From: Lasiodiplodia sp. COLG20
Lineage: Eukaryota; Ascomycota; Dothideomycetes; Botryosphaeriales; Botryosphaeriaceae
DNA: 64,000 nt
Direction: 5' to 3'
NCBI GenBank assembly: GCA_009801085.1
Contig: VNWV01000015.1
Span: forward strand, 186,001 to 250,000
A program made the translations under genes and the position numbers. Under the pieces are notes generated by a model, which saw nothing but the letters and a program-made list of their open reading frames with translations, made no database searches and was not told the DNA's origin. Positions 13,773 to 35,424 of this stretch are shown here, one piece after another (the stretch's first letter is position 1; every line of letters starts with the position of its first letter).

Positions 13773-15075
13773 AGGGTGAGTGATCAGCGCCATCACCACA
13801 ATCTCCTCGCTGAACCCTAGAGAAGACAGATTAGCATGCTTTTCTCATTCGAGCTTTACCGTCCTTAATGTTGCTCGCCTTAAAGTCAATATCAGCTCTC
13901 CCGCTAGTAATCTGTATTCCCTACATTTTCAGGCATACTTTAGACACATTCCTGACGAATTCTGCATTGTATAGCTGTTCTTAACTGTGACATCCGCGGT
14001 TATTTTGCTATCGGCCGCGTCTTTCTTGTCCCAGTATTTTCTTTATCTAGATATCTTTTTTAGTTACTTAGTTCTGTTAAACAGTTGATAGCTATCAGTC
14101 AGTTCTGGAAAGCTGCTGGAAAAAGGTGCTTTCGGGGTAGATTAAACTCGCCACTCAAAGCCAAAGTGAGTAGTCTCAGCAGTTGTCATAGATACGAACT
14201 ACGATCACTAAGACCCCATGCCTTGAAGCACACATGCACGCCAGCATTGACTACATTGCTGTACCATTCAGCATTACTATGCAATGCGACGGCAAGCGTA
14301 GGCTGCCCGGATCTAGACAGATCCCGAGTGGGTCTCACGTGACGATGGCGCTTAGCCGACGTCGGGTTCTCTTTTTCCCGCTTCTGACGCGTCGACATCC
14401 CACGTATTCTCTCGTCTGCTTTCCTTTGCTGCAAGAGTACCATCCCTGCTCCAACTGTCGACCCTGAGCGCTGTCCCTTGCCGGTACCCTGAAAAGTGCT
14501 TTAGAATATTCCGTCCTGTGGCCGGAGGCCCCTGCAGGATTGCCTCTTGGGTGGCCCCCTCCCGTGCAAGCTTTTGGCCCTAAGGGTTAAGTACTCCGTG
14601 TGTTCTGGAGTCCGTAACAGTTGGGTTACTTTCTGCTCGTAGACGACTGCTTACCATTACTCGTTCCTCTCGCGGGCAACGAACGCCATGGGGGCCATGA
14701 TGCAAGGATTCGCGGGAGAGCAAGCCGTTGATTGGCACACGACTCGCGCAGGGCCAATCGCTAATATGCATTGCGGTCCGTCGCAATGGGTAGGATTCCA
14801 CAAAGCCGCATGTTGCTTGCATCAACATCCTGTTTGTTGCTAGCGAGCGCTTGGAGCTACCAAGCCGTGTCTACTATAGCTACATATGCGTTCAGCCACT
14901 CGGTCTGACGTGCTATCAACCCTTGCATCAGCCTTTTCATTGGGTAGTTGGTTACGATCGGTTGGCGCAGGGGCCAGGCACCGCGCCGCACTTTGTATAA
15001 CGAGGACGGCCGATGCGACGAATACCAACGCTTCCAGAGTAAATCAGACACCGAAATCACTGAGCACAGCAAACC
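13773..15075. other. Intergenic region, 1.3 kb
   Basis: No supported coding region. I searched the part just upstream of 15076 for a Zn(II)2Cys6 exon and found none. Confidence 0.55.
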
Positions 15076-16588
15076 ATGTACCACTGGACGACGGCTGATA
15101 TGGAGGCGACGCTTTCTCACGAGTCGCAATTCGCGTTCCATGGCTATGCCGTTGAGGGCCTCTCGGTGGTCGGCGAACCATTACACGGATCACTGACGGA
15201 GGAGCCCTTGTCTCTTGGCCTGCCTGACAGCTCTCTGGAACGAGAAACGAGTCTCTTAATGCTGTACTTGGACCATGCGTTTCGGCTCCAATTCCCGGCC
15301 TACGAGCCTCCGCTGTCCGCGGGAGGCCGGATCTGGCTGCTTTCCCTGCTGACTTCCACGAAACCCACCTACTACGCTACGCTCAGTCTTGCTGCCAGGT
15401 ACTCGAAGCTCTTACTACCACAAGACGAAGTCTCCGGGGTGCATGAACTATGGCGAGAAGAAGAAATGAAGCATCGGCCCATTGCCATGGAGGAACTGCA
15501 AGCCTGCGTGCTTTCCCTGACAACGAGTGGAAGCCCTCACAACATACGAGCAACCGTCAATGCTCTGGCATGCATGATGCAAATGTTAAGTCTTGACGTA
15601 CGTCCCATGGATATTCATCCTGGAGGATCTGCTAACAATGCTGCAGTCGCTGGAGACCGGAGTAGAGTACTGGACGAGCTCCTTGGATATGGCGGCGCCA
15701 CTACTCATAACCCTCGCCGAGTTCGTAGAGGCGCAACCAGCCTCATCCGAGCCGTCCTTGGCTACTATCCCCGTCCCACCGTCCTTCGACGACCAACCGC
15801 TGTCCTACGAAAGCTCAGCCGCCCTGAAGTTCGTCACCACAGCGTTCATCTGGATCGACGCGCTATCCCGCATCTCGACCGGCTCCACCCCCATCCTCCA
15901 CTCCCACCGCCACCTCCTCTCTACCCACACCAACATCATCCAACTCGACCAGCTAACCGGCTGCGCGAACTGGGTCCTCTCGCACATCCTCGCCATCGCC
16001 GCGCTCGACCACTGGAAGAAAGACCAGCAGCGCACGCACCGCCTCAGCCTGCGCGAGCTCGCCGCCCGCGCCGCCGCCATCGAGACGCAGCTGACGTCGA
16101 CGGCCGGCGCCAGCCTGGGCTCGACCGAGTCGGTGGCGACGCGCATCGGCGCCCTCGACCCGCGCCGCAGTGCCGCCCGCGTCTTCTGCACGACGCACGT
16201 CTTCGCGCTGGCCGCCCTGACGTACCTGCACGTCGTCGTGTCGGGCTTCAACCCGGCGCTCGACGAGGTGCGTGGGAATGTCGACGCCACTGTTGCGGCG
16301 CTGGAGGCGCTGCCGGATGCGGGGCTGCTGCGGCACCTCGCGTGGCCGTTTTGCGTCACTGGTTGCATGGCTGAGCCGCATCAGGAGGATGGGTTCAGGC
16401 GGATGCTTGCGCGGGCGGTGGCGGCGGGAGGGAGCGACGATGGTGGCGGCGACCCGGCGCTGCTGCGGTGCCGCGCTGCGCTGGAAGTCATGGAGGAGGT
16501 ATGGCGGAAGCGGAGGAACGGCTTGCCGCTGCCCAGCAGCTGGGACGGCGCGATGCAGCTGCATGGAGCACCGGTCCTCCTGATATGA
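15076..16588 (+). CDS. Fungal_trans_2-type regulator without visible DNA-binding domain
   Basis: Exons are 15076-15597 and 15647-16588; the 49-bp intron (GTACGT...CTGCAG) joins LSLD to SLETGVEYW in phase 0, giving 487 residues. The protein is the helical regulatory region of the Fungal_trans_2 class: LYLDHAFRLQFPAY near residue 60, TTAFIWIDALSRIS in the middle and WPFCVTGCMAEPHQEDGFRRML near the end, a hallmark of the family. No CxxC zinc cluster lies at the N-terminus or in the 500 bp upstream. It may act through a partner or be a truncated factor. It sits tail-to-tail with the C2H2 gene. Confidence 0.75.

Positions 16589-16698: not shown

Positions 16699-16728
<30 letters not shown>
16699..16728. 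repeat. (ATC)10 microsatellite at C2H2 gene 3' end
   Basis: Ten perfect ATC units. On the minus strand they read TGA in one frame, and the stop of the C2H2 gene is the first of these units. Other frames would give Asp or Met runs, so unit changes would not alter that protein. Confidence 0.85.
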
Positions 16729-16729
<1 letters not shown>

Positions 16730-17707
16730 CTGCCCATGCACCCTCCTCACATGATCCTTCATATTATCCAACCGACTAAACACCCTTCCGCACCCCCCAC
16801 CCTCCTCATCACCACCGCGCCACGAACACCGTATCCTCGGACAATGCTTCGCCTCATGCCTATCCCGATCCTTCTTGCTGGCAAACCACCACCGCCGTCG
16901 CCCATCGTCGTCATCATTGCTGCCTCCACCACCACTGCTGCTGCTGCCCACGCCATGAGCTGTCGCCGATCGCGGACACGCGGCGTCGACGCGGCAGAAC
17001 CAGCGCTGCGAGTGCCGCCGGTGGTGCTTGCGCAGGTCGCACCCGCGCGTGAAGGCCACGCGCGACGCGCAGCCGGGAAAGGCGCAGCGCCACGCTCGCG
17101 GAGAAGAAGAGGGGCTGTTCGGGGGCAGTGGTATGCCGAGGGCGGCGAGGACGGCTGCGGATGAGCTTGTTGCTTGCTCGGAGGGGGCGCGCGAGGCGGA
17201 GTGATGAAGAAGAAGAAGCTCGGCGTCGTCGTCGTCGTCGTCGTCGTTCGCGCCTGCTGCGGCCTCGTCTCCTCCGGGCGGTGGTGGTGGTGGTGGTGGT
17301 GCTTGTGCCGGTGCCGGTAGGCTCTCCATCGACGGGGCGCCGGGGCTGTCGTTTGTGCAATAGGGGCTGCTGCTGCTGCTGGCTGATGGTCGGTGGTGCT
17401 GAATGCGCGGTCGTGGTTGTGAGGCAGATGGGGAAGTGGACAACGACAATGTTGCCGCAGCGGGAGGGCTTGGTGTCGTTGTTGTCGTCGTGATTGATGG
17501 AAACGGCGGTGCACCGAGCGTGTTGAAGACGGGCGAAGACGACAACACAGCAGCAGCAGCGTCGTCCGGCCACGAGAAGCCACGGAAAATGCTCGCTGCG
17601 TCGCTGACGGGTGGGAGCTGCGGCGGCGTTTCTACGCGGGCGAAGAGTGGGAGCGCGGACCAAGGCCTCCTGGGCCTGACTGCTGCTGCTGCTGTGGTTG
17701 CTGCCAT
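16727..17707 (-). CDS. C2H2 zinc-finger protein
   Basis: A 326-residue intronless ORF with ATG at 17707. The N-terminal two thirds are disordered: Ala, Ser, Thr and Pro runs, an eight-Pro stretch and an Asp run near residue 155. The C-terminus holds finger-like units: WRCAFPGC...HHRRH, WFCRVDAAC...RHEAKH with a Gly/Ser/Asp insertion, and RCSWRGGDEEGGGCGRVFSRLDNMKDHVRRVH. This is the layout of fungal C2H2 transcription factors that bind non-palindromic sites. It is the nearest DNA-binding candidate to the shared promoter motif at 22-31 kb, but nothing in the sequence links them directly. Confidence 0.78.
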
Positions 17708-20166: not shown

Positions 20167-20239
<73 letters not shown>

Positions 20240-22021: not shown

Positions 22022-22500
22022 GGTGAGATTGAGTGTACTCGGAGCATCTCTCCGTGCAGCGAGCGAGCAGGACGGCTCAATGAATGTTCGGTTATCCCAT
22101 ACATCGCAAATATGGCGCCTTACAGCGCGTTGGTGTAGTCACTGCGTGCTGCAGGAAGCCTGATTCCTAAGCCTTGCTGCCTAGCAGCTAGCGAGGCTTG
22201 CATTGCGGCAAGCCCCTGCCGCAGGGTCGGATAAGCTCACGTCAACGCTAGGGTCGGCCCTCGTCCCCGAATGCGGCAGGTAGACACACGACAGCTCCCA
22301 CCCATGCAACAGCAACGCGACCAGGTGCGGGGGCGGCCATCGAAACTCAACCCTCCCCCAGCTCTGCATCGTCCGGACTTATTTCCGCCCGCCCAACGGT
22401 GGGATTCAAAGTTGGCGCGGAATACGGGTCAAGAACGGTTACAGTTGCACCAAGCGCCATGTTATCATCTATCTACGAATTACCTACCCCAGCAGCCCAA
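22022..22500. promoter_or_regulatory. Promoter region of the NTase gene
   Basis: Contains the motif copy at 22151-22163. Just beyond it are two small inverted repeats, AAGCCT...AGGCTT (22169-22199, with an inner GCTGC/GCAGC) and GCGGCA...TGCCGC (about 22205-22222). No ORF of note. Confidence 0.5.
22151..22163 (+). promoter_or_regulatory. Shared cluster motif, copy 1
   Basis: GCAGGAAGCCTGA, 130 bp upstream of the NTase-fold gene start at 22021. Confidence 0.65.
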
Positions 22501-23211
22501 TCACAAATCCGCACCGCCAGCAGGCACCCTCCTCTGCCAGCAGCTCCCAAACGAGACGTGCGCCCACTCGACCGACTCCTCCACACCGGGCGCCTCGAGC
22601 GCCCACTTGAGCAGCACCTTCGCGCAGTGGTGCGCATGGTCCTCCGACCACACCTTCCGATCGTACACGTCGTCGCCGCCCACGGCCCGCGCGACGCGCG
22701 TGTACATGAAGGCGCAGTGCGCCAGGTGTTGGCGCTGCGGGCCCCAGAACCCGACGTCGGCCGTCTCGCGGGAGAAATCGAGGACGGGTTCTTTGTTGCT
22801 GCTGTCGTGAGCAGCATCGCCGCGCCAGTACTCGAACGTGTCGTTGTGGAAGGAGCGGTACGCCTCGTCGCTCGACCGGTCGCACTCGCGTGGCAGCCAC
22901 ATTAGTGTTAGGCGGTCGAAGGTGCAGTTGCGCGCGAGTGCCTCGTCGACGCTGCTGCCGCAGTGGAGTTTCTGCTCTTCGAGGATGCGAGGCGGCGGGT
23001 TGGCGGCCGTGTGGTGGCGGTGGCCGTGCCCCTGGTGGATGCCGGCTGTGTAGCCCAGGCCCAGCGCCGCGAAGAGGGCTAGCGTGATGGAGAAGACGGC
23101 GAGGAGGTGGCGGCGCGTGGGTGCGTAGGACCGTGTTGGCTTGCTGGAGGCTAGGTCTTCGTCGCTGGTGGTGGGGAGTTTCCCGTAGCCTTGCTTTGTG
23201 GCGAAAAACAT
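22501..23211 (-). CDS. UstYa-like single-pass membrane protein with two HxxHC motifs
   Basis: A 236-residue intronless ORF with ATG at 23211. Residues 1-35 are cytosolic and basic, 36-56 form one membrane helix (LLAVFSITLALFAALGLGY), and the rest should be lumenal. The lumenal part starts HCGSSVDEALARNCTFD, then LMWLPREC, and holds HLAHC (162-166) and HAHHC (192-196). Paired HxxHC motifs after one N-terminal helix are the signature of UstYa/DUF3328-type proteins, which oxidatively modify or cyclise ribosomal peptides. This copy fits a common fungal branch with the CGxSxxEA...C-F-D opening, whose chemistry is not known to me. Two motif copies lie 330-360 bp upstream. Confidence 0.68.
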   Translation of the reverse strand: MFFATKQGYGKLPTTSDEDLASSKPTRSYAPTRRHLLAVFSITLALFAALGLGYTAGIHQGHGHRHHTAANPPPRILEEQKLHCGSSVDEALARNCTFDRLTLMWLPRECDRSSDEAYRSFHNDTFEYWRGDAAHDSSNKEPVLDFSRETADVGFWGPQRQHLAHCAFMYTRVARAVGGDDVYDRKVWSEDHAHHCAKVLLKWALEAPGVEESVEWAHVSFGSCWQRRVPAGGADL

Positions 23212-23538
23212 TTTTTTTTGTTGCTGTCTTGGACGTCAGTCTGGGATTTGTCAGATGGATTGGATGTGAGGGCCATTTACGCTGTGTGAGATCTTCAACT
23301 TGGTGTTGTCAAGACACCGTCTCGGTGATGCCGCTATAGCTAACGAGTTGTGATCAGTGGAATCAACAGTGTATCTCAATTGCACAGTTCGCCATGAAGT
23401 AAGCTCGAGAGTGAATCATCCAGTGCCTCTGTGGACTGACCGATCCTTGGGCTCACGCTATTCTCATTACATCACGCCATTGGAAGCCCAAGCGTTTAGT
23501 TGCCAGTAGTCAGTGGTCGAGGTTCCCTTTGTTTAGCT

Positions 23539-23551
23539 GCTGGAAGCCTGA
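23539..23551 (+). promoter_or_regulatory. Shared cluster motif, copy 2
   Basis: GCTGGAAGCCTGA, upstream of the UstYa-like gene. Copy 3 starts 18 bp further on in the same orientation. Confidence 0.65.
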
Positions 23552-23556
23552 ATGCT

Positions 23557-23569
23557 GCGGGAAGCCTGA
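23557..23569 (+). promoter_or_regulatory. Shared cluster motif, copy 3
   Basis: GCGGGAAGCCTGA, forming a tandem pair with copy 2. Confidence 0.65.
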
Positions 23570-23985
23570 TCGACGGCGTGGCATAGTTAGCCTGAGCGGC
23601 GATTTATCTTGCCAGTACTGCAACAGCTCCACAAGCTCTAGGTCTCTAATTGTCCGGCTGACAAATACAAAAATTTCCAAGACACAGCAGTTTGAGACTT
23701 TTCCCAACTTTACTGTCAGTGTTTCATCTGGAAGTGGCCGCTACGAGTGCCCCGTCGTCAGCAAAACTGTTCGGATGCGAATTGTATGGTGATGATGAAT
23801 CAATTAATTTGTACAACCTACGGGAATCTTTGACTTATTTGAAGCATAATCGAATTCATCATAGTCATTATCATCATCATTGACAAATCACTGGAGTCGG
23901 TCCCTCAATGAAAACTGGCATACAAGATAGCTTTCTTCAGTGAAGTGTGTATTCAATCTTATGATAGATATGGAATCCATATTAT

Positions 23986-25020
23986 CTACAGCGCCTTCTT
24001 CTCTCTGAATTTTGTCTCTTGCTCTTGCTGCTGCACGTGCTCCGCCCTCTGCAACCAGCCCTCCGCCATGGCTCCGCCGAAGACGAGGACCAAACCCAAC
24101 CACTGCCACTCTGTGGGGGTTTTCTGGAACCAGAGGATGCTCATAAGCATTGAGAGTGTCTTCCTAACTACACGGATGTTCATTTGAACAAGGCTCGAGA
24201 AGCTAGGAAATGCAACGAAGAGAAGCAGCTGCGAGGCGGCGCCAAGCACAGCATAACCGACGATGTCGTAGAGCACTGCAGGCTGCTGCACGATGAAGCG
24301 GAGAGCCATCAAGAGCTCTCCTCTACTTTCGTGCGCCATTGCTGGCAGGATCGTTTCCGGTAGAAATTGGACTCCGACCAGGTAGATAGCCGTGAATACA
24401 GTGGCGACGATGTTCTGAGCCAGCATCCGCTGGGGACCCCTGAGGCCACCGTAGATGGCGGGAGAACTGACAACATGCTCCAGGACAATATAGGTGGAGC
24501 CTTCCAGGAAGAGGTTGACTAGAAGCAGCGAGAGACCGAAAAGGTGATCTCTGTGGCTCCCGCTCGGGCTGCCGATCGCAGCCAGGGCGAAAGGGCTCTC
24601 GAGTGTGACGAGCAACAAGCCCAGGGTGACTGCGAGGAAAAGTGCATATCGGGAGATTGGATATCGCTTTCGCAGGAAGATGACGTTGAGAGATACTACG
24701 GGTAAGAGCATGCACGACTTTGAGACTACCAGAGCAGAGTAGTCGACATAGCGCAGCGAAGCAGTGCCGAACTGAGAACCAAAATTGCTCGCCCAGCTGA
24801 TGAACATCAACGGAGCAACGCTCGCAAGGGCAGGTATCTCGAGCTTGAATGCAGTTGACTTTCGAGCATGCAGGACTAAGTAGAGGCCGGCGGCCACAGC
24901 GTTGAACAAGGACTGGATTGTGTTGAAGACGACCGGAAACCTGAAGTGCCCTGTGTTCGGGTAGGGTTTGGTGAAAACACGCTCCTGAAACACAGATGAC
25001 GCCAAACTGGTGTTCAACAT
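23986..25020 (-). CDS. UDP-galactose/nucleotide-sugar transporter, SLC35B1/Hut1 family
   Basis: A 344-residue ORF with ATG at 25020. It has about nine hydrophobic helices. Family marks are VFQERVFTKPYPN, FRFPVVFNTIQSLFNA, the SWASNFGSQFGTASLRYVDY stretch and RKTLSMLMSILWFQKTPTEWQWLGLVLVFGGAMAEG near the C-terminus. The tail ends in KKAL, a possible ER-retrieval signal. The protein should move a UDP-sugar into the ER lumen. TM1 looks short against the family, so a small 5' exon may be missing; an acceptor near 25065 could serve. No shared motif is found in its promoter. Confidence 0.85.
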   Translation of the reverse strand: MLNTSLASSVFQERVFTKPYPNTGHFRFPVVFNTIQSLFNAVAAGLYLVLHARKSTAFKLEIPALASVAPLMFISWASNFGSQFGTASLRYVDYSALVVSKSCMLLPVVSLNVIFLRKRYPISRYALFLAVTLGLLLVTLESPFALAAIGSPSGSHRDHLFGLSLLLVNLFLEGSTYIVLEHVVSSPAIYGGLRGPQRMLAQNIVATVFTAIYLVGVQFLPETILPAMAHESRGELLMALRFIVQQPAVLYDIVGYAVLGAASQLLLFVAFPSFSSLVQMNIRVVRKTLSMLMSILWFQKTPTEWQWLGLVLVFGGAMAEGWLQRAEHVQQQEQETKFREKKAL

Positions 25021-25464
25021 TAGTTTCCGGTCTGAGGATCTTTTGAATATCGAGTGGACTCACTAGAAAAGAAAATACCCTCCAGCCAAAGATGATAAAT
25101 CGCGTGCCTGCCGAATGCGATCCCTGGACGGCTGGATCGCCTTCAAGCGTAATACAATTGAGTTCGTATTGAACATAGCGTAATGTCTCTGGAGACGTCG
25201 TCTATCAGTTGTTAGTCTATATTGTAGTGTTGTCGAGTACATAAAACAAAGCACCTGGTAGTCGTTGATGGAGCTTGGGGAGCTCGCGCCACTCCAACCC
25301 GGCGATCAGGCCACACGCATGTATGTTCCACGAGACGCAGCGACATGCCTGCTCTCTACCCCGGCCAGGCCCTCGGGCCGCCCGTCGCCTTATCCAACCC
25401 GCCGTGCTTCTCGCATCGCTCACCTTCCCTCCACCAACCCATATTCGAGACACACCCGCGAATC
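25021..25464. promoter_or_regulatory. Divergent promoter, transporter / ITPase
   Basis: About 440 bp shared by the two divergent genes. An in-frame ATG at 25345 would extend the ITPase by 40 low-complexity residues. No GGAAGCCTGA copy is seen. Confidence 0.5.
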
Positions 25465-26284
25465 ATGTCAGCAACACGGCCCCGCGTGCTGAACTTCATC
25501 ACGAGCAACCGCAACAAGCTTGCAGAAGCGACTGCGATCCTTCGCGGCTGCGTCGAGCTGCGCAGCCAATCCGTGGACGTCCTGGAAATCCAGGGCACCC
25601 CGCGGGACATCGCCGCGGACAAGTGCAGGCGCGCTGCCATTGCCGTGCGTCATTTTTTCTCCCTTTTTTATGCCCCACAGAGAGGCACAGTGGGAGGCCT
25701 TGCTGACAGTTCTACATGGACAGGTTAACGGTCCAGCGCTCGTCGAGGACACGGCGTTGGAGTTCCACGCGCTCAATGGCATGCCGGGGCCTTACATGTA
25801 CGTCATCCCACTCTTGCCCGCAGCTGCATGCCTGACGTCCCATCGTCCTCAGCCGTCCGTTCTTCTCGGCTATCGGCAACGACGGCCTGCGCAACCTTCT
25901 GGCCGCGTATGAGGACAAGTCTGCTACTTCGGTTTGCACCCTTGCGTACTGCCAGGGACCAGGGGAGGAACCCTTGATCTTTGAGGGACAATGTACTGGC
26001 ACGATCGTGCCACCAAGGGGGAGCAATGGTTTCGGTGTGTGAAAGATGTTGAGTTTTTTTTGGCTCCGACAGAAGGAGCTGACATACATACCCTTCCAGC
26101 GTACGATCCGATCTTCGAGCACGAGGGCCAGACCTTTGCGGAGATGGACCCCGCGTACAAGGTAAGTCAGACGCTATGCACTGTACAGGCTGGACCAACT
26201 TCTCATATGTCGTAGAACCAAGTTTCAGATCGGTACAGGGCTCTGCAGAAGCTGCGACAGTGGCTGGAAGATGCGACAGACTGA
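25465..26284 (+). CDS. HAM1: Inosine triphosphate pyrophosphatase
   Basis: Five exons: 25465-25644, 25724-25797, 25853-26034, 26100-26161 and 26216-26284 (188 residues, normal for the family). All four introns (79, 55, 65, 54 bp) keep frame. The Ham1/ITPase motifs are in order: [62 protein letters not shown], and DRYRALQKL near the end. The enzyme hydrolyses ITP, dITP and XTP to monophosphates and keeps deaminated purines out of nucleic acids. GFG-W is GFA-Y here, a mild change. The start at 25465 matches the family length. Confidence 0.95.
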
Positions 26285-26541
26285 TCACGAAGAGGAAGAA
26301 TTGGTGGTAAATGCTACATTCCTCTTAGAACTTTATCTGTATACATCCGGTATTGAAACAGATCCATTTATCTCTTCCATCTTATGTTTCTCTAGAGCCT
26401 CTACGTAGATCCATCATCACAGTAAAAACCCCCCTACGTGTTGAGTTGTTGGTCAGTTGCACAAAAGGAGCGCTGACAAGGGACCCCACTCACAGCTCTC
26501 CCACCACACAAATACCCAGAGGGGCAGCAAATCGAGCCATC

Positions 26542-26696
26542 CTAATCAGGCCCGCAGCAGTACTCGCTCGACCCGCAGTCGGAGACCCCGCTGCATGCCT
26601 GTCGCTAGTTAGCACGTCGCGCGGGCGCCAGGGCTTGACACGCACTGCAGCAATGGAGAACAGGGAAAGAAATACCAAAAAAGCGCGCAGCTGCAT
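26542..26696 (-). CDS. Tiny secreted Cys-rich peptide
   Basis: Exon 1 (26696-26646) encodes MQLRAFLVFLSLFSIAA, a clean signal peptide. A 47-bp intron (26645-26599) starts GTGCGT and ends GCTAACTAGCGACAG, with an ideal branch site, and is phase 0. Exon 2 (26598-26542) adds 18 residues with four Cys spaced C-x5-C-x5-CC and a short C-terminal GPD before TAG, for 35 residues in all. Unspliced, the frame gives a 68-residue Cys-poor product, so the intron is what reveals the peptide. The shared motif lies 130 bp upstream, the same distance as in the NTase gene. The Cys spacing resembles the first half of a knottin, but family and function are unknown. Confidence 0.6.
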
Positions 26697-26825
26697 TTGT
26701 GGTTATTGACGCCGATGCAAGCAGGTGGGGGGGACGGCGCCAAAAAAGAAAATGCTATCATATGGGGCCCGAAGCATGCCATATGTACAGCGAAGCTTTC
26801 TGCCCCGCCGAAGGATTTGCCTGCT

Positions 26826-26838
26826 GCAGGAAGCCTGA
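26826..26838 (+). promoter_or_regulatory. Shared cluster motif, copy 4
   Basis: GCAGGAAGCCTGA, 130 bp upstream of the small secreted peptide start at 26696. It lies between the 3' ends of two larger genes, so the small gene is its only obvious target. Confidence 0.65.
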
Positions 26839-26975
26839 CTCGTTGTAAACGCTGGGGGCGGATTCCCGCAGAGACCCTTGCGGTTGCCCAACTCCGAGAC
26901 TGAATCTGGGATACGAGATCACATACACTAAGTGCCATTTCCTATGACCAGAGGACCAATCAAAACGCACATTCC

Positions 26976-28593
26976 TCAATAGCAGTCCGCGTCAACAAGC
27001 TCCCGCTCCTCCGCCCCCATCTCCGTCGTAAACCCCGTCGTAGCGCTGAGGTCGGCAATCCGGCCCAGCAAGAACTCGAGCTGCCTGAACGCAGCGGCGG
27101 GCTGGTACGCCGGCACCTCGTGCCCGCTCAGCTCCACCGTGCAGAACGTCATCCCGCGCTCCGAGACCCAGCGGCCCAGCACCCCCGATCCCGCCGCACT
27201 CCCTACCCCCCGAGCAGTACGCGGGACGTAGAACGGCGCACTCGGCGCCGCCCTGAAGCCCTGGGCGCCGTTCCACGTCAGGTTCTGCAGCGTGAGCAGC
27301 GAGCCGGCGCTCAGCAGGATCATGTCGCGCGCGCCGTGGGCGACGACGACGTTGCGCGTGGCCTCGACGACGCGCTGCAGCGGGCCGCCGGTCAGGCCGG
27401 ACGGCGGGGAGCGGTCGGTGAAGTTGGCGATGACGGGGGTGGGCGTGCAGAGGTGCCAGGTGGTGTCGAGCGGCGCGTGGATGGCGGATTTGACGGATGT
27501 GCGGTTGAAGTAGGGCTCGAAGTTGGCCGGCACGTGGACGGTCTGGTAGGCCGGGTTGCCGAGGACGTCCCATGCGATGGGGCACAGGGACCCGGCTTCG
27601 TAGATGTTGAAGCACGGGTTGAGGTCTACTGCGGCGGCGTATATTGCGGAGAGCAAGTCGCATTCTTGCGTGACGGTCCCGTTGGAGTCGAGGCCTGGGG
27701 GCGGCGGTAGCGGGCCGGTTGGTGGGAATGAGAGCCCTGCTGAGAGGAAGGAATCGTAGCCGCATGAAGAGCTTCTGTCGTGGATTTCTTTGTTGAATGT
27801 TTCGTTGAATGGGAGGCTATTGATGTTGGTATGACAACGGTACTGAGGCAGATGCGGAGACATACCTTTGCTGATGAGCGTCAGTGAACGCTACAATAGG
27901 GACCTGTTTGGATATTTGTGGCCATCCGAAACTGGGATCGTATATCATGATTCCAGAAACGTTGAAGTAAGACTTGTCATCTTGATCAAGCATAGCTGCG
28001 GCAATGTACGGTACGTATTGCCCGGCAAAACTCTCTCCAGTGATGAAGACCTTGCGGTCATGTAACCCAAAAAGGTCCACAAAGTTCTTCCAAAACGAGA
28101 GAAACTGCACAGCAGCATCTTCAGACGAAGTTGCGTTCGGGGTGCCCTGCGAGAATCCAGTTCCAACAGGCTGGTCAATCCAGACCATGTTTGTCAAGTT
28201 GACCCAAGTCCAGGGATTCCGCAGTGGCATGTAGCTGCCGGGTGGCCAAAGGACAGGACCCTGCTCTCGAAAGAAGCCGTAGAGAGAAGAGCACCCGGGC
28301 CCTCCGTTGAGCCATATGGTTATCTCATCACCGGCTGCTGGATTTTGGCTGGGAGCAAACCAGAAGAAAAGCTCTTTGCCACTTTCATCAACCGGAAGCA
28401 GCCCAGAGTATGTTTCCCCAATATCAAAGTCAACATCTGGTAGAGCTGACCCATTCACAGAGAATGGGAGGGTCTGTTCTGTGAGAAATTCGCTACTACC
28501 TGTTGCATGTCTAGGAGCCCCCTGGTCTGGGTTCTGTGTTGGGGCACTCCAAACAACCGGCAAGTACGAGAAGAATAGCGGAAAGATAATCAT
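26976..28593 (-). CDS. Secreted serine carboxypeptidase, peptidase S10
   Basis: Exons are 28593-27866 and 27816-26976; a 49-bp intron (phase 2) joins HQQ to SLPFNETF, giving 522 residues. Residues 1-17 are a signal peptide. S10 motifs: [10 protein letters not shown] (about 94-103, oxyanion hole), [10 protein letters not shown] with nucleophile Ser188, HGARDMILL carrying the Asp, and [12 protein letters not shown] carrying the His. The triad is complete. Many N-x-S/T sites suggest glycosylation. No C-terminal membrane helix is seen, unlike Kex1. It removes C-terminal residues from peptides in the secretory path or outside the cell. It is transcribed divergently from the repeat-protein gene over a shared motif site. 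Confidence 0.93.
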
Positions 28594-29077
28594 GAGAGAC
28601 AGAAAACCAAGTCCTCGGCAGGGTTACGGGAAAGAAACTCGCAACCACAATCTGGCACGCCGAAACATGTCATGACATCCCAGCAGTGTGAACCACCATG
28701 CAGTACCGTTTGTTACTACGCTTCTAAGGATGCAAGTCAGGTGCTTGAATAAGGCAATGCAGAGGCAGTGGAGGCCTCAATGCATGGGGGCCACGGCAAT
28801 TCCTTGACCTTCTCATGCAGGAAGCCTAAGGCTCCTCCTGACAGTGGGCCCCGGCCATCAACTACCCAATCCGATAGGCCCGAATGAGATAGGCAGAGAG
28901 CTTTCTTCCGCCACAGCAACCCCGCACCTAACACGTCGCGGCGTTCCAAGAGTAGATGGTCGGCTGGCTGTAGTCGATAAGACTGCAAGACGCTGCCGCC
29001 TCTCGGCCCCATAGATAGTTACATGTTCCTTTGAATACGCTTGCACGGTTACGTAGCAGCCGTCAAAGCCAGGAAAA
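28594..29077. promoter_or_regulatory. Divergent promoter, carboxypeptidase / repeat protein
   Basis: A 484-bp region shared by two secreted-protein genes. It holds one near-exact motif copy at 28817, almost in the middle. Confidence 0.6.
28817..28829 (+). promoter_or_regulatory. Shared cluster motif, copy 5 (one mismatch)
   Basis: GCAGGAAGCCTAA, 224 bp from the carboxypeptidase start and 249 bp from the repeat-protein start. Confidence 0.5.
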
Positions 29078-30889
29078 ATGTATCGTGAGTTACCCAACAT
29101 TTCAAAGAAAACCTTTGACACAACTGACATATGGTATGCAGAACTCCCCCTCTTTATTGCCACTTTGATCCTCTCAGGGGGCTCCGCGGCATCACCCCTC
29201 TCTCTCCGTGATGCTGGAGCACCTCTATCCCTCCGGGAAGCTGCGCCTCTATCATTGAGAGACGCTGGAGCACCCCTTTCCCTCCGCGAAGCCGCGCCGC
29301 TATCACTAAGGGATGCTGGAGCGCCTCTTTCTCTTCGGGACGCTGGAGCGCCTCTTTCCCTCCGCGAGGCTGCTCCACTCTCCTTACGAGAGGCGGCTTC
29401 GACTCCATTGTCTTTGCGCGAAGCAGCACCACTATCACTAAGGGATGCCGGGGCGCCTCTTTCTCTCCGTGAAGCTACACCGCTATCCCTAAGGGACGCT
29501 TTGCCACTATCACTAAGGGACGCTGCGCCGCTATCACTAAGAGATGCTGGAGCACCTCTTTCTCTCCGCGAGGCTTCGGCTCCACTGTCTTTGCGTGATG
29601 CAGCACCGCTGTCCCGGAAGGACGCAGCATCAGCACCTCTTTCTCTCCGTGAGGCTGCTCCTCTCTCTCTCCGCGAGGCTGCTCCTCTGTCTTTACGTGA
29701 GGCTGCTCCTTTGTCCCTTCGGGAAGCTGCGCCACTATCACTAAGGGACGCTGGAGCTCCTCTTTCTCTACGGGAAGCTGCTCCACTGTCCTTACGAGAC
29801 ACCGCTTCAGCTCCCCTCTCTCTGCGCGAAGCCGCTCCCCTCTCTCTCCGTGAGGCCGCTCCCCTGTCTTTGCGCGAGGCAGCTCCTTTGTCTCTGCGCG
29901 ATACTGCACCGTTGTCGATGCGGGATGCCACTCCAGTTCCCCTTTCTCTACGGGAGGCCGCGCCTCTCTCTTTGAGAGATACTGCCGCGACACCTTTGTC
30001 ACTACGCGATGCCGCCCCCCTCTCCATGCGAGACGCTTCCACTGCGCCCTTGTCCAGGCGTGACGCCGCTTCAGCTCCCCTATCCCTGCGCGAGGCCGCC
30101 CCGCTGTCCCTCAGAAACGCAGCTCCACTCTCCCTTCGGAATTCCGCTCCTCTGTCCCTCCGAGACGCCTCTCCCGCGCCCCTATCCCGTCGCGACGCGG
30201 CCTCAGTTCCACTCTCCCTCAGGGACACCTCCTCCACCCCGCTCTCCCTCCGGGACACGGCTGCCGCGGCGGCGCCCCTCGCCCGCCGCGTCGACGCGCC
30301 CGCCCCCAACGCCCTCTACGTCCGCTCTGGCGTCCAAGTCTCCTCCGACCACGTCCTGCGCTACCTGCGCTCCCGCAACCTCATCAGCTGGATCCCGTCG
30401 GGCGCCGGCTTCCACGTCGACATCGCGGCGCCGCTCTGGGAGCTGGGGCTGGCCGGCGCCGCGCGGCGCAAGCGGTCGTACGCGCCCATGCCGGCCAAGC
30501 GCGCCGTGCGGCTCGTCGACGACGCTGCTGTCGGGGGGTCGGTTGCGTGCTACGCGCAAGCGGCGACGGTGTCGGTAGCGCGTCTGCAGCAGGTGGCCGA
30601 GGACGCGTGCGAGGCGCTCGCGGAGCCGATGGGGGCGGGTGTTGAGTTTAGGATGTGGGAGGTGGAGGTTGATGTCAGTGATGGGGGAGCGTCGCACTTG
30701 CGGGTTGGTGTGCAGGTGCTTGGTGGTGGTGGTGGCGGGGGGTTGGCTGGCGATGTGGCCGTGTGCCGCGCGACGCTGGCGGCTGTGGGAGAGGCCTGCG
30801 GTGCCGGCAGCGGCAGCGTCGCCAGCGGCGATGTGCTGGTTGATGGCCGCTTCTTGCTCTCCGTGGACCCGGTCCGCGTGCTTCACTGA
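29078..30889 (+). CDS. Secreted protein with about 41 tandem PLSLR-type repeats
   Basis: Exons are 29078-29084 and 29142-30889 (584 residues). The 57-bp intron (GTGAGT...CAACTGAC...GCAG) is a multiple of three, so the unspliced frame is also open. Only the spliced form begins with a signal peptide, MYQLPLFIATLILSGGSAA. Then about 41 units follow, mostly APLSLR-(E/D)-A with spacers AG, AS, ST or none; variants are SRK, SRR and SMR at the third to fifth places. Each unit ends in Arg and the next begins with Glu/Asp-Ala. From about residue 380 a non-repeat domain follows (LYVRSGVQVSSDHVLRYLRSRN; AARRKRSY; two Cys) that I do not recognise. Candidate precursor of a processed secreted repeat peptide. 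Confidence 0.72.
   Translation: MYRELPNISKKTFDTTDIWYAELPLFIATLILSGGSAASPLSLRDAGAPLSLREAAPLSLRDAGAPLSLREAAPLSLRDAGAPLSLRDAGAPLSLREAAPLSLREAASTPLSLREAAPLSLRDAGAPLSLREATPLSLRDALPLSLRDAAPLSLRDAGAPLSLREASAPLSLRDAAPLSRKDAASAPLSLREAAPLSLREAAPLSLREAAPLSLREAAPLSLRDAGAPLSLREAAPLSLRDTASAPLSLREAAPLSLREAAPLSLREAAPLSLRDTAPLSMRDATPVPLSLREAAPLSLRDTAATPLSLRDAAPLSMRDASTAPLSRRDAASAPLSLREAAPLSLRNAAPLSLRNSAPLSLRDASPAPLSRRDAASVPLSLRDTSSTPLSLRDTAAAAAPLARRVDAPAPNALYVRSGVQVSSDHVLRYLRSRNLISWIPSGAGFHVDIAAPLWELGLAGAARRKRSYAPMPAKRAVRLVDDAAVGGSVACYAQAATVSVARLQQVAEDACEALAEPMGAGVEFRMWEVEVDVSDGGASHLRVGVQVLGGGGGGGLAGDVAVCRATLAAVGEACGAGSGSVASGDVLVDGRFLLSVDPVRVLH
29190..30280 (+). repeat. Coding minisatellite, 24-39 bp units
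   Basis: Imperfect tandem units encode the octapeptide-like repeats. The commonest unit is 24 bp, with longer ones carrying 3-15 extra bases in whole codons. Codons vary between units (CTATCA, CTCTCC, TTGTCT and so on for Leu-Ser) while the peptide is kept, which suggests selection on the protein. Confidence 0.85.
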
Positions 30890-31226
30890 ACCCTGACGCA
30901 CGCACTGTCGGCTTTTTCCCGTGGCCCGGATGGCAAACGAGCGGCTAGTTAGAGGCATGGCTGATGGGGGTGGTGTGTGGGATGGTGTGATCAGTGGTTG
31001 GAGAACCATCGATGGCGATGTTGCAGGGGGTGGGTGGGTCGTGAGGCGAGCGGCGGGACTGCAGCAGGACATTGGCGTGTCGATTGGAAGTGGGCCTGGT
31101 TTTCCTTCGAGACGATCTCATCTTTCAATTGGCTTTTCTTTTTCCTTTAGTTTTACGTAGCAAAGAATGTCGCTCTTTACTCAGCAGAAAAGAGGCGTTG
31201 AGAAAGCCAGTGTGAAGCTCGTGTCG

Positions 31227-31239
31227 GCTGGAAGCCTGA
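31227..31239 (+). promoter_or_regulatory. Shared cluster motif, copy 6
   Basis: GCTGGAAGCCTGA, 132 bp upstream of the ABC exporter ATG at 31371. Confidence 0.65.
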
Positions 31240-31264
31240 TCTACGTTTCGTCCCGCTGCCACAT

Positions 31265-31277
31265 GCGGGAAGCCTGA
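31265..31277 (+). promoter_or_regulatory. Shared cluster motif, copy 7
   Basis: GCGGGAAGCCTGA, 94 bp upstream of the ABC exporter start; 38 bp from copy 6. Confidence 0.65.
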
Positions 31278-31370: not shown

Positions 31371-34300
31371 ATGGCGACCGACCCGCTGTCTCTGCAGTTG
31401 GACGGCGTGCCTTCGCACCAGTACAAAGCAAAAAGACAGTCCGTCTTTGCGTACGCCACGCTGTTCGACCGTGTTACCGTTGCCATCAGCTGCCTATGCG
31501 CCATCAGTGCCGGCGCTCTGAACCCACTCCTGACCGTCATCTACGGCAACCTCGTCGGTAGCTTCCAAGACTACGCCAATGGATCCACCACCAGCAGCAC
31601 TCTGCGGCAGAACATCTCGCGCTTCACGCTCTTCTTCGTCTACCTCGCCGTGGGAGAGTTCGTCCTGGTCTACGTGGCCACGGTCGGCTTCTTCCACACC
31701 GGCCAACGCATCTCCCAGAGCCTCCGCAAAGCCTACTTCCGCGCACTCTTGCGTCAGAACATGGCCTTCTTCGACCGCCTCGGCACGGGCGAGGTCACCA
31801 CTCGGCTCACCTCGGACATGCACCTGGTGCAGGAAGGCATCTCGGGCCGGATCTCCCTGACGCTGACGGCGCTGGCCACCTTCTGCACCGCCTTCGTCGT
31901 CAGCTTCGTCATGTTCTGGAAGCTCGGCCTGATCCTCGTCCCCGCCGTCGCAGCCATGGCAGCCGCCAACGTCTTCGGCGGCAAGCGCGCTCTGCACCAC
32001 ACACGCCAGGCCACCGCCGCCTCCAGCGCCGCCGCCGCCGTCTCCGAAGAGGCCATCCGGTCCATCAAGCACGTCGCCGCGCTCAACGCCCAGGAGACCA
32101 TGGCGCGGAAGTACCTGGCGCACGTCCGCCGCGCCGAGGGCTTCGGCGTCCGCGCCCGCGTCGTCAGCGCCCTCGGCGTCGCCAGCTTCATGGGCGTCAT
32201 GTATCTCAGCTACGGGCTGTCGTTCTGGCAGGGGTCGCGCTACCTCGTGCGCGGGGACGTGACGGGCGCCGGCGTCGTCACCGCGACCATGGCCGTCGTC
32301 ATCGGCGCCGTGGCCGTGGGCAAGATCGCCCCGAATGCCGAGGCCTTCGTCGCGAGCGTCGCCAGCGCCGAGGGCATCTTCGACACGGTTGGCCGCAGGT
32401 CGCCGCAGGATCCGCTGTCCGAGGAGGGCGACAGGCTTGAGAATGTGGAGGGCCATATCGCGTTTCGCGGCGTGCGGCTGGCATACCCGGCGCGGCCTGA
32501 CGTGACTGTGCTGGACGGCGTTGACTTGGATTTTCCGGCGCGCAGAAAGACGGCTCTGGTCGGGGCTTCCGGCTGTGGCAAGAGCAGCATTGTCGAACTG
32601 ATAGAGAGATTTTACATGCCTCTGGGAGGCCGTATTAGTATGTTCCCACACGCGACCCTTCACGGCCTCGACCTTGACATCATTTTCTCACAGCCTTGGA
32701 CGGCCGGCCGATTGAGTCGTTGAACCTGAACTGGCTGAGGTCTCAGATGGCACTGGTGGGTCAGGATCCTGTACTGTTCAACACGAGCATTCTCAACAAC
32801 ATTTGCTACGGTCTTTCCGGCCAAGAGCCTGAGCTCCAGCGTGACCGAGCTGTTGCCGCAGCAAAAGACGCGGGCGCCCACAACTTCATCGTTGGGCTGC
32901 CTGCCGGCTACGAGACAAGAGTGGGCGAAAGCGGACTTCAGTTGTCCGGCGGCCAAAGACAGCGTATAGCCATTGCGAGAGCACTGATTAGGGACCCGAA
33001 GATTGTCCTTCTGGACGAAGCAACTTCGGCACTGGACTCTGCGTCAGAGGCAGAAGTCCAGAAAGCATTGGATGTCGCCGCCGAGGGTCGGACAACCATT
33101 GTCATCGCTCATCGGCTTTCGACGATTCAAAACGCAGACAACATCATCGTGCTCGCTCATGGTCGTGTCGCCGAGCAGGGGACCCATGAGTATCTCATGC
33201 AACAGAAGGGAACGTACTTCACCATGGTCGAAGGACAGAGGCTTCTATCGGCGAGACAGAAAGAGGGCATGGAAACAAGCCTTGTACGATCATTGTCCGC
33301 AGCATCACTGACCAAGAAGGGAGCAAGCAACGAGCACTGTTCCGAAGTCAATGAAGAAAGCAAAATTGAAGGTCTCTCGCACACAACACCCCCACAAACT
33401 GTATCATACTCACGAGTGAAGCAGGAGACACGATCGAAACGGGCTCGTCTGCCAGGACCGGACCGTCTACTAAAAACCCTTCAAATGCTTCCCTGTGGAC
33501 GCTGATGAAAGTCATCGCCAGATTGAACCGCCCCGAAGCCCTGCTCGTCCTGACAGGCTTGGCCTGCGCAGTCGTCGCCGGCGGAGGAACTCCAGCGTAA
33601 TCGCCAATGGCCGTATATTCGACCATGACAGTGCTGACAAACCGCACTTGCAGGCAGTCCGTCTTCTTCGCCAAGTCCATAGACGCAATGTCGCTACTAC
33701 CGCCCTCCTACGGCCTCCTGCGCCAACGCATGGACTTCTGGGCACTCATGTACCTCACGCTCGGCATCGTCATCTTCGCCGCCTGGCTCGGGCAGGGCGT
33801 CTGCTTCGCCCTCTGCTCCGAGCGCCTGACGCGCCGCGCGCGCGACCAGTCCTTCCGCGCCATCCTGCGCCAGGACACGAGCTTCTTCAACGAGCCGCAC
33901 CACACCGTCGGCGCGCTGACGGCGCTGCTGTCCAGCAGCAGCACGAAGCTGTCCGGCCTGAGCGGCGCCATCCTCGGCGCCATCCTCACCGCGCTGGGCA
34001 CGCTGGCCGGCGGCGTCGCCCTCTCCCTCGCCGTCGGCTGGAAGCTGGCGCTCGTCTGCGCCGCCACCATCCCCGTCGTGCTGGGCTGCGGCTGGGCGCG
34101 GCTGCGCACGCTGTCCCTCTTCGAGCAGGAGCTGCGCCGCTCCTTCCACGACTCGGCGTCGTTCGCGACCGAGGCCGTCGCGGCCGTCCGGACCGTGGCG
34201 TCGACGTGCCTCGAGCGCTGGGCGGCGGAGCGCTACGGCGCGATACTGGATTCGCAGGCTGCTGAGAGTCTGCGGGCGATCCTCAAGGCGTCGGCGCTGT

Positions 34301-35424
34301 ACGCGGCGTCGCAGTCGCTCGTCTTCCTCGTCGCCGCGCTGGGGTTCTGGTACGGCGGTGGTTTGATTGCGGATGACGAGTACACCGTCTTCCAGTTCTT
34401 CATCTGCTTCGCCGCGCTGGTCTCCGGGTCGCAGTCGGTTGGGGCCGTCTTCTCCTTCGCGCCTGACATCAGCCACGCCCTCGAGGCTGGTCGGGAGCTG
34501 ATGGTGCTGTTCGACAGACAGCCAACGATTGACGACAGCGCGAGTGATAGCGATGGTGGTGCGAGCATCAGCCAGTGCGACGGCGCCATCGAGCTGCGCG
34601 ACGTCACCTTCGCGTACCCGTCGCGGCCCGAGCAGGAAGTGCTGCACGGCGTCAGCTTCTCAGTCCGTCCTGGCCAATTCGTCGCGCTGGTCGGGCCGAG
34701 CGGGTGCGGGAAGAGCACCGTCATCGCGCTGCTCGAGCGCTTCTTCGACCCGGCGAGCGGCGAGGTCCTGCTGGACGGCCAAAGCATAGCGCGGCTGAAG
34801 GTACGCGACTACCGCGGACGCGTGTCGCTGGTCGGCCAGGAGCCGACGCTGTACGAGGGGACGATCATGGAGAACCTCGTTCTTGGTGTGGAGGATGGAG
34901 ACGTCTCGGCCGCGGCTGTGGAGAAGGCGTGCAGGGAAGCCAGCATCTACGACTTCATCACTTCTCTTCCGTAAGTCACTTCACTTTTTCCCCAAATCAC
35001 ACCCACGCCGCTCTCTCTCCCCTTCCTCGAAGAACCACCACTGACAACAACCCACAGTGACGCTTTCTCCACCCCCGTCGGCCCCCGCGGCACCCTGCTC
35101 AGCCAGGGCCAGAAGCAGCGCCTCGCCATCGCCGCCGCCATCCTACGCAACCCGCGCGTGCTGCTGCTGGACGAAGCAACATCCGCGCTCGACTCCGCCT
35201 CGGAGAGCGTCGTCCGCCAGGCCCTCGACGCGGCTGCGCGGCACCGCACCACCATCGCCGTCGCGCATCGCCTCAGTACGGTCCGGAATGCGGATCGGAT
35301 TTTTGTGATGGAGCGCGGACGCATCGTGGAGGCGGGGACACATGAGGAGTTGATGGGGAGGAGGGGCGTGTATTTTGGGATGGTTGAGTTGCAGGGGTTG
35401 GAGGGCGGGGAGGGGGGTGGGTAG
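31371..35424 (+). CDS. Full-length ABC-B exporter (MDR/Ste6-like)
   Basis: Exons are 31371-32637, 32694-33371, 33422-33596, 33654-34970 and 35058-35424 (1267 residues; introns 56, 50, 57 and 87 bp). The order is TMD1-NBD1-linker-TMD2-NBD2. NBD1 has Walker [10 protein letters not shown] (about residue 397), signature LSGGQRQR (about 506) and [14 protein letters not shown]2 has GPSGCGKST (about 1054), a changed signature LSQGQKQR (about 1160) and [12 protein letters not shown]. The second intron uses a weak GTCTCT donor and is the least certain; the others fit well. ABC-B pumps export hydrophobic drugs and peptides, including yeast a-factor. Two shared-motif copies precede it, which puts it in the peptide locus. 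Confidence 0.9.

What the first reader, a model, noticed from the sequence alone, without database searches (positions are those of the whole stretch)
22151..31277. A shared promoter motif marks a co-regulated peptide locus
GGAAGCCTGA occurs at 22154, 23542, 23560, 26829, 31230 and 31268, plus GGAAGCCTAA at 28820, all on the plus strand and mostly preceded by GC[A/T/G]. I found no other copy in the 64 kb by eye, on either strand. By chance a given 10-mer is expected about 0.1 times here. Each copy lies 90-330 bp upstream of the start of one of six genes on both strands: NTase-fold, UstYa-like, 35-residue peptide, S10 carboxypeptidase, repeat protein, ABC exporter. The housekeeping pair inside (nucleotide-sugar transporter, ITPase) has none. 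The distance is 130 bp for both the NTase and the small-peptide genes. This is what a pathway-specific regulator site would look like.
Basis: partly seen in the sequence, partly recalled or inferred. Interest (0 to 1): 0.92.

Follow-up and report, generated by a model that had tools for sequence, protein, structure and literature searches.

The report
Shared switch marks fungal peptide genes
In a fungal genome, one short DNA sequence that is rare elsewhere sits in front of six neighbouring genes that look like a small peptide-making pathway, which is what a dedicated on-switch for that pathway would look like.

Summary
In detail: GGAAGCCTGA occurs six times at the stated places, plus GGAAGCCTAA at 28820, all on the + strand. 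The 43.5-Mb genome has 114 copies of the 10-mer (reversed control 83), but the extended site TGCNGGAAGCCTGA has only six exact copies, five of them in these 9 kb. The seven sites lie in the 5' regions of six genes and skip the transporter/ITPase pair between them. Best reading: binding sites of a dedicated pathway regulator. The zinc-finger gene at 16.7-17.7 kb is only the nearest candidate; binding and expression were not tested.

The six genes resemble a dikaritin-type peptide cluster: a secreted protein with 42 PLSLR-type repeats, a membrane protein with the double HXXHC motif, an S10 carboxypeptidase, an ABC exporter, a secreted nucleotidyltransferase-like protein and a doubtful small peptide gene. 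Two defining features fail: the UstYa Pfam profile, and Kex2 dibasic sites in 38 of 42 repeats. So I do not file it as a dikaritin cluster. In Diplodia seriata the UstY-like and repeat genes have locus tags four apart, as expected from the gene order here. The near-private site makes the gene set and its regulator directly testable.

The parts
22149..22163 (+). motif copy, 133 bp before the NTase-like ATG
   Evidence: 24.1 bits
23537..23551 (+). motif copy, 331 bp before the UstY-like ATG
   Evidence: 23.6 bits
23555..23569 (+). motif copy, 349 bp before the UstY-like ATG
   Evidence: 23.6 bits
26824..26838 (+). motif copy, 133 bp before the small-peptide ATG
   Evidence: 24.1 bits
28815..28829 (+). 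variant copy (GGAAGCCTAA) in the divergent promoter of the S10 and repeat-protein genes (227 and 249 bp)
   Evidence: 20.8 bits
31225..31239 (+). motif copy, 132 bp before the ABC-exporter ATG
   Evidence: 21.5 bits
31263..31277 (+). motif copy, 94 bp before the ABC-exporter ATG
   Evidence: 22.5 bits
21011..22021 (-). secreted nucleotidyltransferase-like gene, three exons read by hand, lower end approximate
   Evidence: frames; PF08843 AbiEii 21.2 bits against a cut-off of 22.5; no genomic paralogue
22501..23211 (-). UstY-like membrane protein, 236 aa, two HXXHC motifs
   Evidence: no Pfam match at E up to 10
26542..26696 (-). putative small Cys-rich peptide gene, two exons (26696-26646, 26598-26542), in-frame TAG at 26544-26542 taken as its end
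   Evidence: no homologue
26976..28593 (-). S10 serine carboxypeptidase, at least two exons, lower end approximate
   Evidence: PF00450, E 3.8e-50 and 5.3e-14 on the two frames
29078..30889 (+). secreted repeat protein, 584 aa, 42 units P-L-[SA]-[LRM]-[RK], one 57-base intron read by hand
   Evidence: Diplodia seriata relative
31371..35424 (+). ABC exporter with two membrane and two ATP-binding domains, several exons, end approximate
   Evidence: PF00664 and PF00005 on two frames, frames
16727..17707 (-). candidate regulator: zinc-finger protein of C2H2 type, 326 aa
   Evidence: PF00096 19.3 bits, below its cut-off of 25.2; frame
15064..16588 (+). second candidate regulator: Fungal_trans_2 protein, two frames, ends approximate
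   Evidence: PF11951, 51.7 and 141 bits against a cut-off of 21
23986..25056 (-). UAA-family transporter inside the locus, without the motif (frame limits)
   Evidence: PF08449
25465..26284 (+). ITPase (Ham1) gene inside the locus, without the motif, ends approximate
   Evidence: PF01725 on one exon

Best explanation
[AC]TGCNGGAAGCCTGA is the binding site of a dedicated, pathway-specific transcription regulator. Its copies in the 5' regions of six neighbouring genes (NTase-like, UstY-like, small peptide, S10 carboxypeptidase, repeat protein, ABC exporter) let one protein switch them on together while the housekeeping UAA-transporter and ITPase genes between them are left alone. Shown: the sites, their near-exclusivity in the genome, their place in these promoters. 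Inferred: that a protein binds them; that the genes are co-expressed; that the regulator is encoded beside them (C2H2 protein at 16.7-17.7 kb, about 40%; Fungal_trans_2 protein second); and that the genes form a secretory peptide pathway in which the repeat protein is the substrate, the UstY-like protein a lumenal copper oxidase, the S10 enzyme a trimming peptidase and the ABC protein the exporter. The confidence given is for the regulator site, not for the chemistry.
For: 5 of 6 genomic TGCNGGAAGCCTGA and 7 of 18 GCNGGAAGCCTRA lie in these 9.1 kb. The seven sites score 20.8-24.1 bits, while the next place in the window has 13.9 and the best of six control regions 14.2 (the matrix was made from these seven sites). 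0 of 7 cluster sites overlap an open frame of 150 aa or more against 9 of 11 outside sites. The promoter pair between the target genes has none. Three genes have a site 132-133 bp from the ATG. Conserved neighbourhood: UstY-like and repeat genes carry locus tags 007928 and 007932 in D. seriata, both with contig length 275,986.
Against: No expression or binding data. Orthologous promoters could not be read. All copies point the same way on the chromosome although the genes do not. Neither nearby transcription-factor gene has a good copy of the site, so self-regulation is not indicated. The bare 10-mer has 108 other copies in the genome, and one-mismatch 14-mers elsewhere (89) exceed the reversed control (58) somewhat. 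Three of 14 promoter pairs are slightly more alike than the best of 60 shuffles even with the sites masked.
Confidence: 0.7

Rival explanations
1. The site is a regulator site, but for a factor encoded elsewhere in the genome; the neighbouring C2H2 and Fungal_trans_2 genes are bystanders.
For: Neither gene has a good copy of the site near it, and a ribonucleotide reductase paralogue separates them from the first target gene. The C2H2 Pfam match is below cut-off.
Against: A factor of wide use would be expected to have more strong sites in the genome; only one exact 14-mer lies outside the locus.
Confidence: 0.2
2. The copies are traces of a spread or duplicated sequence (small repeat element, copied promoter pieces) without regulatory role.
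For: All seven have one orientation; two places are close pairs (23542/23560 and 31230/31268). Three of 14 masked promoter pairs slightly exceed 60 shuffles.
Against: Flanks beyond the 15 columns are not shared; masked promoters give scores of 18-26 against shuffle maxima of 22-28 (the S10/repeat pair is the same DNA and is left out). The element is nearly absent elsewhere.
Confidence: 0.06
3. Chance: the most repeated 10-mer of a window was picked by eye.
For: The 10-mer has 108 other copies. Other 10-mers of the 64 kb reach 5 copies, as do half of ten 64-kb shuffles.
Against: Genome-calibrated Poisson probability, times all stretches, about 9e-10 for the 10-mer. The flanking GC and T, which were not used in the first count, sharpen the enrichment.
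Confidence: 0.01
4. The six genes are co-regulated but make no modified peptide: the repeat protein is a secreted surface or effector-like protein, and the other genes serve the cell surface or an unrelated pathway.
For: 38 of 42 repeats lack a dibasic Kex2 site; the UstY-like protein does not match PF11807; no tyrosinase or methyltransferase was recognised among the frames scanned in the locus.
Against: The double HXXHC motif is kept in the orthologues and in all four genomic paralogues, and these paralogues lie 0.2-5 kb from PF11807 matches. Within PLSLR, codon changes are mostly silent (3,065 against 306 over all pairs, not independent), so the peptide sequence is kept.
Confidence: 0.35

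Closest known systems
Cluster-specific promoter motifs of fungal biosynthetic gene clusters, the basis of CASSIS (passages of PMC10153163)
   Same: Neighbouring pathway genes share a promoter motif that is concentrated at the locus and lets one factor regulate them.
   Different: The sequence itself matched nothing found in print: of 100 papers that hold the string, the 10 listed have titles unrelated to fungal clusters. Cognate factor unknown.
Dikaritin RiPP clusters such as ustiloxin, phomopsin and asperipin-2a (passages of PMC12048977 and PMC6339444)
   Same: Secreted precursor-like protein with many repeats, four annotated-type genes from a double-HXXHC protein, with a peptidase and a transporter.
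   Different: Repeats joined by Leu-Arg-[Asp/Glu]-Ala in place of Lys-Arg or Arg-Arg; no match to the UstYa profile; a secreted NTase-like protein is present; no tyrosinase or methyltransferase recognised among the frames scanned.
DUF3328/UstYa copper enzymes (CctR; abstract and passages of PMC12435403)
   Same: HxxHC(x)nHxxHC motif near the C terminus and an N-terminal hydrophobic segment.
   Different: Does not match PF11807. Belongs to a side family with fixed CG..EA....C...W....C positions.
Kex2-processed repeat proteins and alpha-factor precursors (passages of PMC6339444)
   Same: Signal-peptide-like start and repeats; [Asp/Glu]-Ala after Arg recalls the KREA/KRDA spacer.
   Different: Single Arg in 38 of 42 units.
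Tri6, a C2H2 regulator of trichothecene genes (passages of PMC3182926)
   Same: A C2H2 gene linked to a pathway; the reverse complement TCAGGCTTCC recalls the proposed YNAGGCC.
   Different: That paper found binding to GTGA repeats and not to YNAGGCC. No homology between the proteins was tested here; a resemblance only.

Membership tests
Cluster-specific promoter motif | Shared by promoters of neighbouring genes | tested here: met
   seven sites, six genes
Cluster-specific promoter motif | Concentrated at the locus relative to the genome | tested here: met
   5 of 6 exact 14-mers; 7 of 18 GCNGGAAGCCTRA
Cluster-specific promoter motif | Co-regulation by one factor | not testable with these tools
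   no expression or binding data
Dikaritin RiPP cluster | Signal-bearing precursor with repeated units near a DUF3328-type gene | tested here: met
   42 units; signal-like start judged by eye, no predictor was run
Dikaritin RiPP cluster | Kex2 dibasic sites between repeats | tested here: not met
   4 of 42 units have RR or RK, 38 have Leu-Arg or Met-Arg
Dikaritin RiPP cluster | Class-defining DUF3328 protein by Pfam profile | tested here: not met
   no PF11807 match
Dikaritin RiPP cluster | Transporter or peptidase in the cluster | tested here: met
   PF00450, PF00664, PF00005
DUF3328/UstYa | Two HXXHC motifs | tested here: met
   HLAHC and HAHHC; all six residues invariant in 8 sequences
DUF3328/UstYa | Match to PF11807 or to genomic PF11807 members | tested here: not met
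   profile comparison probability 0.5% with 4- and 3-sequence profiles, so weak as a test
DUF3328/UstYa | Copper binding and oxidation | not testable with these tools
   structure model unusable, mean pLDDT 39
Nucleotidyltransferase fold (AbiEii-like) | Profile match over cut-off | tested here: inconclusive
   PF08843 21.2 bits against 22.5; only a chance-level PDB match, E 0.8

The most novel reading that the evidence does not exclude
A dikaritin-like peptide class of Botryosphaeriaceae in which a 42-unit precursor is cut at single Arg residues (Leu-Arg, then an alpha-factor-like [Asp/Glu]-Ala spacer), trimmed by the carboxypeptidase to very short Pro-Leu-Ser peptides, oxidised by a UstY relative outside the known profile and possibly nucleotidylated inside the secretory pathway by the NTase-like protein, all under one private regulatory site. 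A variant: the true core is the S[YF]APM peptide bracketed by dibasic sites in the C-terminal domain, kept in both species.
Probability: 0.17. Interest if true: 0.72.

Novelty: new variant of a known kind. Interest (0 to 1): 0.5.

Why it matters
A regulatory site almost private to one locus can outline an unrecognised gene set without expression data. It ties together genes that profile-based cluster finders could miss (a UstY relative outside Pfam, a 42-repeat secreted protein with single-Arg junctions, a secreted NTase-like protein), and it gives direct tests of which regulator and which genes belong together.

Tried and rejected
Chance: rejected on genome-wide counts and controls. Promoter duplication: not supported by masked promoter alignment; a first version was spoiled because mask letters matched each other and is not used. 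Wider regulon: of the 11 GCNGGAAGCCTRA sites outside the locus, 9 lie in frames of 150 aa or more. Of the two others, one (C56:2134147, L025) lies about 185 bp before an ATG of a protein without Pfam match and one (L027) lies between a deaminase-like and an MFS-like frame. The one exact 14-mer outside (C23:1599745, L023) is in short frames downstream of a chitin synthase frame. Contig C36 has three 10-mer copies in 24 kb, two of them inside frames. I saw no pattern; only the first 100 of the 114 10-mer places were listed.

A vitamin-B12 ribonucleotide reductase beside the cluster: rejected, it is class I. The Rfam 5.8S search to name the species found nothing; the fungus is placed near Lasiodiplodia and Diplodia only by protein identity. 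Structure models of the UstY-like protein and of the D. seriata repeat protein were too poor (mean pLDDT 39 and 40), so no fold search was run. Ten literature searches (listings only, five papers then read in passages) showed no description of this locus or site.
Full report
Observation. The window is C7:186001-250000 of a 43.5-Mb genome in 88 contigs; genes and relatives are fungal. The bare 10-mer has 114 copies genome-wide, against 83 for the reversed control; from the other 108 one expects 0.023 in these 9,124 bases. Aligning the seven sites extends the motif to the left: G and C fixed at -3/-2, T in 6 of 7 at -4, any base at -1. GCNGGAAGCCTRA has 18 genomic copies (control 12), 7 of them here. 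TGCNGGAAGCCTGA has 6, 5 of them here. With one mismatch 96 places are found against 58 for the control, 7 of the 96 here. By weight matrix the seven sites score 20.8-24.1 bits, the next place in the window 13.9, the best in six 10-kb control regions 14.2. The matrix was made from these seven sites, so their scores are high by construction; the gap to the rest is the point.

Results that temper this: within 64 kb other 10-mers reach 5 copies, as do half of ten 64-kb shuffles, so the count matters through its concentration in 9 kb. Mismatch counts in the window alone are weak: 10 with one mismatch, reached by 5 of 100 shuffles; 28 with three mismatches in the 14-mer, reached by 30 of 100.

Placement. 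Gene starts read by hand give site-to-ATG distances of 133 (NTase-like), 331 and 349 (UstY-like), 133 (small peptide), 227 (S10), 249 (repeat protein), 132 and 94 (ABC). The S10 and repeat genes share one site in their divergent promoter. With my hand-drawn gene limits, intergenic DNA is 32% of the stretch and holds all seven sites. None of the seven overlaps a stop-to-stop frame of 150 aa or more, whereas 9 of the 11 GCNGGAAGCCTRA sites elsewhere do. The promoter of the UAA transporter and ITPase, in the middle, has none. With the sites masked, 11 of 14 promoter pairs are no more alike than the best of 60 shuffles; UstY/ABC, peptide/S10 and peptide/repeat are so by 1-2 points (the last two involve the same DNA). 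The sites therefore hardly came with a longer copied piece. All share one chromosomal orientation; for five separate promoters that happens by chance about once in 16.

The repeat protein. It has 584 aa after removal of one 57-base intron, a signal-like start judged by eye, and 42 units P-L-[SA]-[LRM]-[RK]; 36 read PLSLR. Codons inside these residues vary freely (all six Arg codons are used). Over all pairs of units there are 3,065 synonymous against 306 amino-acid-changing codon differences (pairs are not independent). The peptide sequence, not the DNA, seems to be kept. Spacers are 3-7 residues and mostly begin with Asp or Glu. Dibasic sites are at residues 161, 308, 352, 384, 444-447 and 455-456. 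The last two bracket SYAPMPA here and SFAPMTS in Diplodia seriata. The only relative of the C-terminal domain found is from D. seriata (62% identity; only the 7,991 candidates sharing most words were scored); its annotated N terminus looks like the repeats read in another frame. The genome has no second copy; the only other match is the reverse strand of the same repeats.

The UstY-like protein. It has relatives in Lasiodiplodia theobromae (89%), D. seriata (72%) and one unnamed record (42%). In D. seriata it is SLS54_007928 and the repeat gene SLS54_007932, both listed with contig length 275,986; this fits the gene order here if the small peptide gene is unannotated there (inference from tags and lengths). 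It carries HLAHC and HAHHC. No Pfam family matches at E up to 10; it is not among the 22 PF11807 matches of the genome; a profile comparison with three genomic PF11807 members, on shallow profiles, found nothing. Its four genomic paralogues keep both motifs, with 13 invariant columns in 8 sequences that include all six motif residues. Three paralogues lie 0.2, 0.9 and 1.2 kb from a PF11807 match and the fourth about 5 kb from one. The DUF3328 protein CctR is described as a membrane-anchored copper enzyme with this double motif (PMC12435403, abstract and passages), and double HXXHC has been proposed as a mark of RiPP-related DUF3328 proteins (PMC12048977, passages). I take it to work like a UstY protein without filing it in PF11807.

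The other genes. The NTase-like protein has a signal-like start, a sub-threshold AbiEii match, no genomic paralogue and only a chance-level PDB match. The S10 carboxypeptidase and the ABC exporter are clear. The small peptide gene is weak: two exons give 35 aa ending ACSGVSDCGSSEYCCGPD, and after the in-frame TAG at 26544-26542 the frame continues with more cysteines. A search with both parts, X at the stop, had one candidate and no hit at E up to 1; Pfam gives only granulin at E 1.4. Whether this is a short peptide, a broken longer one, an alternative splice form or a recoded stop cannot be decided here.

Mechanism. The best-supported reading is a private regulator site. [quoted passage not shown] Candidates for the factor are the C2H2 gene at 16.7-17.7 kb (Pfam match below cut-off; further Cys/His spacings visible by eye) and the Fungal_trans_2 gene at 15.1-16.6 kb. 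Neither has a good copy of the site near it. The resemblance of TCAGGCTTCC to the YNAGGCC motif proposed for Tri6 is only a lead, and the paper seen reports that Tri6 does not need YNAGGCC (PMC3182926, passages).

What the pathway makes is inference. A signal-bearing repeat protein, a double-HXXHC protein, a peptidase and an exporter fit a dikaritin-like route, and precursors are said to lie on average three genes from the DUF3328 gene (PMC12048977, passage); here it is four or five. But Kex2 sites between repeats, usual for such precursors (PMC6339444, passages), are missing from 38 of 42 units. The Arg-[Asp/Glu]-Ala junction recalls the KREA/KRDA spacer of alpha-factor (same passages), with a single Arg. 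A structural or effector role of the repeat protein stays open.

Verdict. The kind (a cluster-specific promoter motif) is known; the gene set it marks is a variant of the dikaritin layout that fails two defining tests.

Noticed in passing
18511-20862 +: A second, diverged class I ribonucleotide reductase large subunit (47% identical to the one at C34:1082867). Against human R1 the first 58 residues are unmatched, the radical-site Cys aligns with Arg, its neighbour Asn with Gly and one of the redox Cys with Ser (residue roles recalled), so it looks like a pseudoenzyme; it also has a poly-Ser insert. A self-protection or decoy role beside a pathway is conceivable.
   Followed up: partly
26400-26696 -: The small peptide frame goes on Cys-rich past its in-frame stop, and a possible second intron with a GTGAGT donor lies beyond; two alternative endings are conceivable.
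   Followed up: partly
30400-30480 +, residues 444-456 of the repeat protein (approximate place): A short peptide S[YF]APM.. bracketed by dibasic sites, kept in D. seriata: a possible hidden core peptide.
   Followed up: no
outside the window: C7:294873-301323, C1:4101423-4103337, C36:81568-88693: Groups of genuine PF11807 UstYa genes, each with a paralogue of the window's UstY-like protein close by. None of the first 100 listed places of the bare motif falls in them.
   Followed up: partly
28858-30315 -: The antisense frame of the repeat array is open for 485 codons, and the D. seriata gene model seems to read part of the array in a wrong frame.
   Followed up: no
7101-9248 +, 59538-61412 +, 42190-43131 -, 54522-55415 +: Two HET-domain genes and two DUF3176 genes flank the locus.
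   Followed up: no
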